Origin: Dongia rigui
Lineage (GTDB): Bacteria > Pseudomonadota > Alphaproteobacteria > Dongiales > Dongiaceae
Direction: 5' to 3'
Assembly (NCBI RefSeq): GCF_034044635.1
Contig: NZ_JAXCLX010000001.1
Coordinates: 620,001 to 684,000 of the forward strand
DNA length: 64,000 nucleotides
The number at the start of each line of letters is the position of its first letter. Position 1 is the first letter of the stretch. The position numbers and the translations under genes are program-made. Below are positions 23,782 through 25,306 of the stretch, piece after piece. The notes under the pieces were generated by a model. The model saw only the letters and a list, made by a program, of their open reading frames with translations. It was not told the DNA's origin and searched no databases.

Positions 23782-24024
23782 TCAAGGGCAAATTATCTTC
23801 ACCGGCGTTCCGTCCTTGAGCCTGTAGATCTCGCGGCAATCGGCTGATGTATCGCTGGGGCGCACGCCGTAATCGACAGTATCCAGCAGTTCGCCAAAGG
23901 ACGTCCAACCACTTTCATCCCAGTCCATGTTCGACCAAGACAAGCCTTTCCCAAAAGTCTCGCGGGCACCAATCGCTGCACCAATCAAACACAAGACAAT
24001 TATCACCTTGCCGCCAGTACGCAT
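23782..24024 (-). CDS. Small exported or anchored protein (candidate immunity protein)
   Basis: An 80-residue protein from ATG 24024 with an N-terminal hydrophobic segment (KVIIVLCLIGAAIGA, residues 6-20) that could be a signal peptide or anchor. The rest is acidic and Trp-rich (SWSNMDWDESGW) and ends with a Cys63/Cys79 pair that may form a disulfide. No family is recognised. It begins 10 bp after the stop of the 423-residue gene on the same strand, so the two are almost surely co-transcribed. Large toxin-like gene followed by small exported protein is the usual effector-immunity order; that role is inference only. Confidence 0.6.
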   Translation of the reverse strand: MRTGGKVIIVLCLIGAAIGARETFGKGLSWSNMDWDESGWTSFGELLDTVDYGVRPSDTSADCREIYRLKDGTPVKIICP

Positions 24025-24034
24025 CGGTCCACCG

Positions 24035-25306
24035 TCAATTATCGCCCAGCACCGACCATGGAGCGCTGGAAAATGGGGGCGCTGCTTGATCCGGATCTGC
24101 TTTGTACAAGGTATAGACGTTGCCATCGACTATCTTATTGTACACTAAGGCGTCTCGCAGGTCTTTCGGCGTCAGCGCCAGGCCCAGTGGGAAGCCGAGT
24201 TCTTCCAGACCGCTTTCGATGGGATCGGCACAGTTGGAAATTGCCCAGTTGTAGTTGTGCGCATCGCCGTATGACGCGATGTGATTCTTGAGGGCGGCCT
24301 TCTGATGTTTGTCGAGTTTCAGTGCGAAACCGGTGGCATCACGAAAGTTGTTTCGCTTCATATAATCGCCAAACCGCTCGGCAAACATGCCTTCCGGCCC
24401 CCATGAATATACGACACCGTCGACATTCATAGCCACATGACCAAAAGACGACTCGGCCCAGCCGGCCGGCTCAAAGAACAACACTTCAACTTTATCGATC
24501 TTCTCTGATTGAAGACGTTTCTTCTTCTCTTGATCACGTCGCGTACGCGCGTCGGAATGATTTCGCGCTACCGCCTCGTCGATGTCCAAGTCGTTGTCGT
24601 TGGCGGCCATGGCCGAGGCGTCGCCTTGCGCCTGGGCTTTTTCCGTTGCGAGTTTGCGGCGCAGGGCTTGCACTTCCGGGCTTTCCTTCGTGCCCTCGTT
24701 GGCGGCGTAGAAATAGCCGTCGTCATAGCCGCGATAGATGCCGGGGATGCCAAGTGGGATTTCGCTGCCATCGGGTGCGCGCGTTGCCTGTTGTAATTTG
24801 AGTTGAGTCTCCATCGGCAGCGGGTCGCCGTTATGCGCCAAGGCAGGATCAACACCAACGCGGGCGTAATGGAGGTTGAGCGCGTGGAAGTCGGGCCGGT
24901 TCTCAGCCGTGTCATGCGGGCGGCCAGCCGGGTGGGTGAGCGGTACCCTGGCGATGTCGACCAATTGCTCGACCGGTTTGGCGTCGGCGCCTAGATAGAC
25001 GTCGATGGCGTCCTGCCCTTGCGCTTGGTTGGCGGCAACCTGTGGCGTGGTCCTGTAGAGCCGTCCACCAACGGCGAAATGCCGGTCGTCCTTCTGCCCC
25101 GTTTTCTGAAAGGCCTGCTGCGTCGCCCAGTCGGCCGGCTGGGCCGCGGTCCAACGGATGGGATCGATGCCCTGAGCATGGAGATCGGTGGCAAGATTTA
25201 GTTTTTCAGCGTAATCCGGCGAGCTTTTCGGACTCTTAAGTGGTTGTAATTCTTCGGTCTTTTTCGCAATAAATGAGCGAATAACCCTGGGAATCGGTCG
25301 CGGCAT
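24035..25306 (-). CDS. Unknown protein with possible permuted papain-like (His/Cys) C-terminal domain
   Basis: A 423-residue protein without signal peptide or transmembrane helix. ATG 25306 follows GGGAG. Residues 1-210 are Pro/Gln-rich and match no family I know (GGRLYRTTPQ, IYRGYDDGYFY); 210-272 are charged and helical (RRDQEKKKRLQSEK). The C-terminal part, 272-400, has a conserved-looking order FGHVAMNVDGVVYSW (His290) and NWAISNCADPIESGL (Cys359), as in permuted papain-like hydrolases such as DUF4105, YiiX or LRAT folds. That arrangement fits an amidase, protease or acylhydrolase effector, perhaps a type VI or contact-dependent toxin. No secretion gene is near. Lower GC than its neighbours suggests transfer. 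It starts divergently from imuA across the LexA box. Confidence 0.65.
   Translation of the reverse strand: MPRPIPRVIRSFIAKKTEELQPLKSPKSSPDYAEKLNLATDLHAQGIDPIRWTAAQPADWATQQAFQKTGQKDDRHFAVGGRLYRTTPQVAANQAQGQDAIDVYLGADAKPVEQLVDIARVPLTHPAGRPHDTAENRPDFHALNLHYARVGVDPALAHNGDPLPMETQLKLQQATRAPDGSEIPLGIPGIYRGYDDGYFYAANEGTKESPEVQALRRKLATEKAQAQGDASAMAANDNDLDIDEAVARNHSDARTRRDQEKKKRLQSEKIDKVEVLFFEPAGWAESSFGHVAMNVDGVVYSWGPEGMFAERFGDYMKRNNFRDATGFALKLDKHQKAALKNHIASYGDAHNYNWAISNCADPIESGLEELGFPLGLALTPKDLRDALVYNKIVDGNVYTLYKADPDQAAPPFSSAPWSVLGDN

What the first reader, a model, noticed from the sequence alone, without database searches (positions are those of the whole stretch)
24035..25306. Unrecognised 423-residue gene with a His/Cys hydrolase-like C-terminus beside a small exported protein
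The protein has no signal peptide, a non-homologous-looking N-terminal half, a charged linker and a C-terminal block with His290 in FGHVAMNVDG and Cys359 in NWAISNCADPIESG, the order seen in permuted papain-like folds. An 80-residue protein with a signal or anchor segment and two Cys follows after 10 bp. Large-effector-then-small-exported-partner is typical of toxin-immunity pairs, and base composition is poorer in GC than the surroundings. This could be a new effector family.
Basis: partly seen in the sequence, partly recalled or inferred. Interest (0 to 1): 0.65.

Follow-up and report, generated by a model that had tools for sequence, protein, structure and literature searches.

The report
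Dongia toxin–immunity pair with swapped tip
A soil/water bacterium (genus Dongia) carries a modular weapon gene whose last third looks like a lipid-cutting enzyme also found at the tips of known bacterial toxins, with a small membrane protein beside it that very likely protects the owner; how the weapon leaves the cell is unknown.

Summary
On the minus strand, 25306→24035, lies a 423-aa gene, and 10 bp on an 80-aa gene (24024→23782) with an N-terminal membrane segment. It is a polymorphic effector–immunity pair. (1) The C-terminal domain (res 268–423; His290, Cys359) is the C-terminal tip of RHS proteins in Pseudomonas, Azoarcus, a Thiotrichaceae MAG and two other genomes; GH and NC are kept in 8 of 8 homologues. 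(2) Homologues of the 80-aa gene directly follow the closest homologues, and within seven Dongia genomes occur only in the three that hold the toxin domain. (3) The N-terminal module sits at two fixed loci in Dongia with exchanged C-termini, one SLT-like. (4) The AF2 model matches permuted NlpC/P60 folds (YiiX Z 10.9; T6SS effector TseH Z 9.2). A Dongia homologue exceeds the Pfam cut-off for Lnb_N (ex-DUF4105), sister of the phospholipase effector Tox-Act1. Best reading: an antibacterial Cys–His acyl hydrolase acting on membrane lipids from the periplasm; a peptidoglycan target is the main rival. Delivery is open: no TssC in seven Dongia genomes, no VirB4 or contractile sheath in this one. Toxicity, immunity and substrate are inferred, not shown.

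The parts
24035..25306 (-). Effector gene, 423 aa: N-terminal Dongia module + linker + C-terminal toxin domain
   Evidence: ORF; homologues of the N-terminal module at the same locus in G001, G003, G004, G006, none with this C-terminus where it could be read
24557..25306 (-). N-terminal module (res 1-250), found only in Dongia, shared by effectors with different C-termini; no signal peptide
   Evidence: Alignment A7 of 8 proteins; 4 of 289 alphaproteobacterial genomes, all Dongia; no plasmid match
24635..24889 (-). Second repeat-like unit of the N-terminal module (about res 140-224: YAxxGVDPxxAHxGDPL...YRGxDDGxFYxAN), also present in the otherwise different N-terminus of the Dongia homologues L012/L013
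   Evidence: hhalign E 1.7e-7 against the L012/L013 N-terminus
24506..24556 (-). Charged linker (about res 251-267)
   Evidence: Sequence
24038..24505 (-). C-terminal toxin domain (res 268-423), permuted NlpC/P60 papain-like fold, Lnb_N-related
   Evidence: Homologues at RHS tips; AF2 pLDDT 76.6, pTM 0.77; VIA-align Z 10.9 YiiX, 9.2 TseH; Pfam Lnb_N for homologue L014 31.3 bits, cut-off 22.2
24437..24439 (-). His290 codon (GHVA motif), predicted catalytic base
   Evidence: Invariant in 8/8 homologues; start of strand E23-28 in the model
24230..24232 (-). Cys359 codon (NC motif), predicted nucleophile just before helix 94-102 of the domain
   Evidence: Invariant in 8/8 homologues; aligns with the NC of Lnb_N in hhalign
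23782..24024 (-). Predicted immunity gene, 80 aa, N-terminal membrane anchor, predicted periplasmic C-terminal part with Cys63/Cys79
   Evidence: Homologues directly after the toxin domain in L012/L014, L013/L015 and the P. amygdali plasmids; 3/3 toxin-bearing and 0/4 other Dongia genomes
23890..23925 (-). EF-hand-like loop in the immunity protein (res 34-45, DWDESGWTSFGE)
   Evidence: Alignment A5: DWNGDGDTSLDE and DWNEDGQTTLGE in Dongia homologues, degenerate DWYQRGNTSIMD in P. amygdali; calcium binding not tested

Best explanation
The two genes are a polymorphic antibacterial effector and its immunity protein. The effector has a Dongia-specific N-terminal trafficking/loading module and an exchangeable C-terminal toxin tip. 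The tip is a permuted NlpC/P60 cysteine hydrolase with the dyad Cys359-His290. Delivered into the periplasm of a competing Gram-negative cell, it would attack acyl linkages of membrane lipids (phospholipase, possibly acyltransferase), as Tox-Act1 does, and make the membrane leak. The 80-residue protein is anchored in the inner membrane of the producer with its C-terminal part in the periplasm, where it would bind and block the tip. Shown here: domain swapping, homology to RHS tips, motif conservation, predicted fold, linkage of the small gene. Inferred: toxicity, periplasmic action, lipid substrate, protection. Unknown: the secretion route.
For: RHS-tip homologues: Thiotrichaceae MAG L016, P. 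amygdali plasmids and Azoarcus, G579 and G644. Same N-module with exchanged C-termini at two fixed loci, one with an SLT-like C-terminus followed by a five-segment membrane protein. tblastn of the 80-aa protein over 72,556 plasmids hits only the same four P. amygdali records, directly behind the RHS gene, with overlapping ORFs. The gene after each of the eight toxin homologues starts with a membrane or lipobox-like segment, which points to an envelope target. Fold: YiiX Z 10.9, TseH Z 9.2. Lnb_N: 31.3 bits for L014; hhalign E 3.3e-6 (prob. 88) against Lnb_N with NC aligned on NC. PMC12994826: Tox-Act1 (sister of DUF4105/Lnb) cleaves PG and PE, needs its catalytic residues, is toxic only in the periplasm, and its immunity protein has two TM helices; TseH also showed phospholipase activity at pH 8.9.
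Against: No secretion apparatus is identified: no TssC in 7 Dongia genomes, and no VirB4 or contractile sheath in this genome. The window's own domain scores below the Lnb_N cut-off (12.7 against 22.2 bits). No significant profile match to E. coli YiiX by sequence. No substrate, toxicity or binding data. The Foldseek E-values themselves were weak (best 0.05).
Confidence: 0.68

Rival explanations
1. Same effector-immunity pair, but the tip cuts peptidoglycan (amidase or endopeptidase), like canonical NlpC/P60 enzymes and Tae effectors.
For: NlpC/P60-type fold; the paralogous Dongia effector with the same N-module has an SLT-like, hence probably peptidoglycan-directed, C-terminus; exported or anchored immunity fits either periplasmic target; VIA-align lists Tae4 weakly (Z 2.4).
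Against: The order is permuted (His before Cys), the best folds are YiiX, YiiX-like and TseH, and the closest Pfam family is Lnb_N. Permuted members act on lipids or acyl groups in the literature (PMC12994826). Tae4 is far below the top matches.
Confidence: 0.2
2. A decaying remnant: tip and immunity acquired by recombination, but the effector is no longer delivered.
For: No known delivery machine found; the copy in G004 at this locus has in-frame stops (L005), the other-type homologues L012/L013 have frameshifts in their N-terminal part, and L003 looks truncated.
Against: The window gene is intact over 423 codons with the catalytic motif and an intact immunity gene; several Dongia genomes keep long open effectors at these loci.
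Confidence: 0.12
3. A cytosolic or eukaryote-directed effector (RID- or DeSI/PPPDE-like acyl transfer or isopeptidase), not an interbacterial toxin.
For: MARTX RID (Z 7.0) and PPPDE1/DeSI (Z 5.3) share the fold.
Against: A co-inherited small membrane protein is typical of antibacterial toxins, and the RHS-borne homologues also carry envelope-type partners.
Confidence: 0.05
4. A housekeeping Lnb-like lipoprotein N-acyltransferase rather than a toxin.
For: Lnb_N similarity.
Against: No signal peptide or membrane part; the domain is mobile between unrelated N-termini and RHS proteins; present in 3 of 7 Dongia; this genome has a separate clear Lnb_N protein (L040, 133 bits).
Confidence: 0.03

Closest known systems
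RHS polymorphic toxin tips (P. amygdali pv. aesculi plasmid pPae1804P; Azoarcus sp. KH32C pAZKH)
   Same: Homologous C-terminal domain (33% and 28% id), immunity-type gene directly downstream; in P. amygdali the immunity gene is homologous too
   Different: In Dongia the tip is on a short, RHS-free protein with its own N-terminal module
Tox-Act1/Imm-Act1 (Salmonella T6SS effector, PMC12994826)
   Same: Permuted NlpC/P60 with His then Cys, related to DUF4105/Lnb_N, periplasmic action, membrane immunity protein
   Different: Not compared by sequence here; the immunity proteins differ (two TM helices there, one TM plus EF-hand-like loop here); no T6SS in Dongia
TseH (T6SS effector, PDB 6v98; Pfam DUF6695 per PMC12994826)
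   Same: Fold match Z 9.2, 131 residues, rmsd 3.7; effector with immunity
   Different: 12% identity; no Pfam match to its family; different context
Lnb_N / DUF4105 (PF13387)
   Same: Dongia homologue L014 above the Pfam cut-off; profile match over the Cys half
   Different: Lnb proteins are envelope acyltransferases; here the domain is a mobile tip without a signal peptide
YiiX / YaeF-like hydrolases
   Same: Best fold match Z 10.9
   Different: No sequence-profile match

Membership tests
Polymorphic toxin system | C-terminal toxin domain exchanged behind a conserved N-terminal module | tested here: met
   Eight N-module proteins at two loci with different C-termini; the same tip behind RHS repeats and another N-terminus
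Polymorphic toxin system | Linked immunity gene directly downstream | tested here: met
   (linkage; protection itself not tested)
Polymorphic toxin system | Known trafficking domain or secretion system | tested here: inconclusive
   No TssC in 7 Dongia genomes; no VirB4 or sheath in this genome; T1SS, T2SS, T5SS, Tad and Dot/Icm not tested
Permuted NlpC/P60 (YaeF/LRAT/TseH/Tox-Act1/Lnb) | Papain-like fold with His before Cys | tested here: met
   AF2 model, VIA-align Z 10.9/10.2/9.2; His290 before Cys359, both invariant in 8/8
Permuted NlpC/P60 (YaeF/LRAT/TseH/Tox-Act1/Lnb) | Cys and His in contact in the structure | not testable with these tools
   Model coordinates not exposed; secondary structure places His on a strand and Cys at a helix start, as expected
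Lnb_N (PF13387) | Score above the gathering cut-off | tested here: inconclusive
   L014 31.3 bits (above 22.2), L015 20.0, window domain 12.7; hhalign E 3.3e-6
Tox-Act1 | Clade membership by sequence | not tested
   Sequence of a pathogen effector was not fetched; literature only (PMC12994826)
Tox-Act1 | Phospholipase activity on PG/PE | not testable with these tools
   Needs an assay
T6SS effector | T6SS core genes in the genome | tested here: not met
   PF05943 (TssC/VipB) absent in G000 and in all 7 Dongia genomes
EF-hand protein (immunity) | Canonical 12-residue loop ligands | tested here: inconclusive
   Loop-like DWDESGWTSFGE; degenerate in P. amygdali; AF2 model low confidence (pLDDT 56)

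The most novel reading that the evidence does not exclude
The Dongia N-terminal repeat module is a tag for a not yet described delivery route: a genus-level set of polymorphic effectors, at two fixed loci per genome with swapped tips, in cells without T6SS.
Probability: 0.35. Interest if true: 0.72.

Novelty: new variant of a known kind. Interest (0 to 1): 0.5.

Why it matters
It extends lipid-directed permuted NlpC/P60 toxins, a class whose first direct characterisation is claimed in 2026 (PMC12994826), to a lineage without T6SS, and links them to RHS tips and to a new single-span, EF-hand-like immunity family. The Dongia N-terminal module gives a handle for finding how such toxins leave cells that lack the usual injection machines.

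Tried and rejected
Single-sequence searches in Pfam, NCBIfam, PHROGs, PADLOC and PDB sequence gave nothing convincing for the pair. A profile search of PDB sequences gave only chance matches. No relative in the phage records or in viral contigs. hhalign against single E. coli YiiX gave no match, although the fold matches. Weak N-terminal hits L007 and L008 (E about 2e-4 and 6e-4) lie in frames opposite a longer, evidently real gene and were judged chance. The AF2 model of the immunity protein was too poor to search (pLDDT 56). Foldseek alone was weak; the VIA-align second look gave the clear ranking. Relatives of the immunity protein in six genomes beside a murA-like gene were judged distant and possibly only EF-hand/TM convergence.

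Full report
OBSERVATION. The gene is real but lies on the minus strand: ATG at 25306, stop at 24035, 423 aa; the + strand of that stretch is not open. The 80-aa ORF runs 24024->23782, 10 bp after it. GC is 57.0% for the pair against 63.1% for the window, and the deficit sits in the C-terminal domain (53.2%) and the small gene (53.5%), less in the N-terminal module (60.9%). That pattern is what one expects if tip and immunity gene were acquired together. No database family matched either protein alone convincingly.

HOST AND LOCUS. The genome has 4.66 Mb in 10 contigs. The contig of a same-genus homologue (L013, G004:C64, 17,924 bases) has the same length as, and carries the same gene as, a record titled Dongia mobilis (L015), so the genus is taken to be Dongia (Rhodospirillales). 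The gene lies between a methyltransferase-like gene and what reads as imuA-imuB-dnaE2 (names from sequence knowledge). In G001, G003, G004 and G006 the N-terminal module also sits beside the imuA-like gene, with another C-terminus where it could be read (L003-L006). A second fixed place, beside a pyridoxal-kinase-like gene, carries the module in G000 (L002), G001 (L011), G003 (L009) and G004 (L010). In this genome that second copy has an SLT-like C-terminus (PF01464 17.1 bits, below the cut-off of 21.3), followed by a protein with five hydrophobic segments.

N-TERMINAL MODULE. Eight copies align over about 250 residues (A7). In 289 alphaproteobacterial genomes it occurs only in Dongia, and not in 72,556 plasmids. 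Its second half is a unit that recurs in the otherwise different N-terminus of the two Dongia homologues L012/L013 (hhalign E 1.7e-7). The window protein has no signal peptide or membrane segment.

C-TERMINAL DOMAIN. Besides two Dongia homologues (42% and 38% id), it is the C-terminal tip of RHS proteins in a Thiotrichaceae MAG (L016; Pfam RHS_repeat), in P. amygdali plasmids and Azoarcus (annotated 'RHS repeat-associated core'), and, read by eye as RHS-like, in G579 and G644. All eight keep GH and NC. The AF2 model (4 sequences, pLDDT 76.6, pTM 0.77) aligns with YiiX (Z 10.9, 124 residues, 2.9 A), a B. cereus YiiX-like peptidase (Z 10.2), the T6SS effector TseH (Z 9.2, 131 residues, 3.7 A), MARTX RID (Z 7.0) and PPPDE1 (Z 5.3). 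The top three stand above the tool's stated background of 7-8; the rest do not. Plain Foldseek was weak (best E 0.05). By sequence, homologue L014 exceeds the Lnb_N (PF13387, ex-DUF4105) cut-off (31.3 against 22.2 bits), while the window domain itself does not (12.7). A profile comparison with six Lnb_N domains gives E 3.3e-6 (probability 88) with NC on NC.

IMMUNITY GENE. The 80-aa protein is related to the genes directly behind the toxin in L012/L014 (110 aa), L013/L015 (99 aa) and the P. amygdali RHS gene (90 aa). Two searches were independent of the toxin. In plasmids it hits only the same four P. amygdali records (one plasmid type, so one event). In the seven Dongia genomes it occurs in the three with the toxin domain and in none of the four without (chance 1 in 35 for a random assignment). 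In a wider sample of 398 genomes the immunity model also finds relatives without a toxin next to them. More distant RHS tips have other partners (L016, L020, L023, L024), all beginning with a membrane or lipobox-like segment. The common feature is therefore an envelope location, not one immunity family.

MECHANISM. Steps shown: module swapping, shared tip with RHS toxins, conserved Cys and His, predicted fold, linkage. Steps inferred: the tip is toxic in the periplasm and attacks lipids. According to PMC12994826, permuted NlpC/P60 proteins act on acyl groups, and the tested toxin of this kind, Tox-Act1, is a phospholipase on PG and PE, depends on its catalytic residues, is toxic only in the periplasm and is neutralised by a membrane protein; Tox-Act1 is the sister clade of DUF4105/Lnb, and TseH also showed phospholipase activity. 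Peptidoglycan cleavage remains the main rival, because the sister Dongia effector seems to be peptidoglycan-directed.

DELIVERY. No TssC in this genome or in the six other Dongia genomes; no VirB4-type ATPase and no contractile sheath in this genome. T1SS, T2SS, T5SS, Tad and Dot/Icm were not tested. This is the open and most interesting point.

VERDICT. It is a new variant of a known kind: a polymorphic effector with a known class of tip, a genus-specific N-terminal module, and an apparently undescribed immunity family.

Noticed in passing
L012 about 740-1100 and L013 about 765-930: Both other-type Dongia homologues have a frameshift in the N-terminal part, at different places; real decay or assembly error not resolved.
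   Followed up: partly
L030-L035 (e.g. L030:1399-1791): Small membrane proteins with a canonical EF-hand-like loop (DWNGDGTVSRDE), weakly similar to the immunity protein, sit next to a murA-like gene in six genomes of one family.
   Followed up: partly
L002:847-2139 (-) and L002:353-904 (-): Second Dongia effector of this genome with an SLT-like C-terminus and a five-segment membrane protein behind it: probably a second effector-immunity pair.
   Followed up: partly
L004:1480-3309, L006:1498-3693: Longer members of the N-module family carry a hydrophobic Ala/Gly-rich middle stretch (KD 1.7-2.0), perhaps a translocation segment for cytosol-acting tips.
   Followed up: no
L024, reverse strand, about 1869-2354: Partner of the G644 RHS tip reads as an ankyrin-repeat lipoprotein-like protein, a different immunity type for the same toxin fold.
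   Followed up: no
L040 (G000:C3:240470-240895): Genuine Lnb_N (DUF4105) domain protein in the same alphaproteobacterial genome (133 bits), rare in the class sample (4 of 115 genomes).
   Followed up: no
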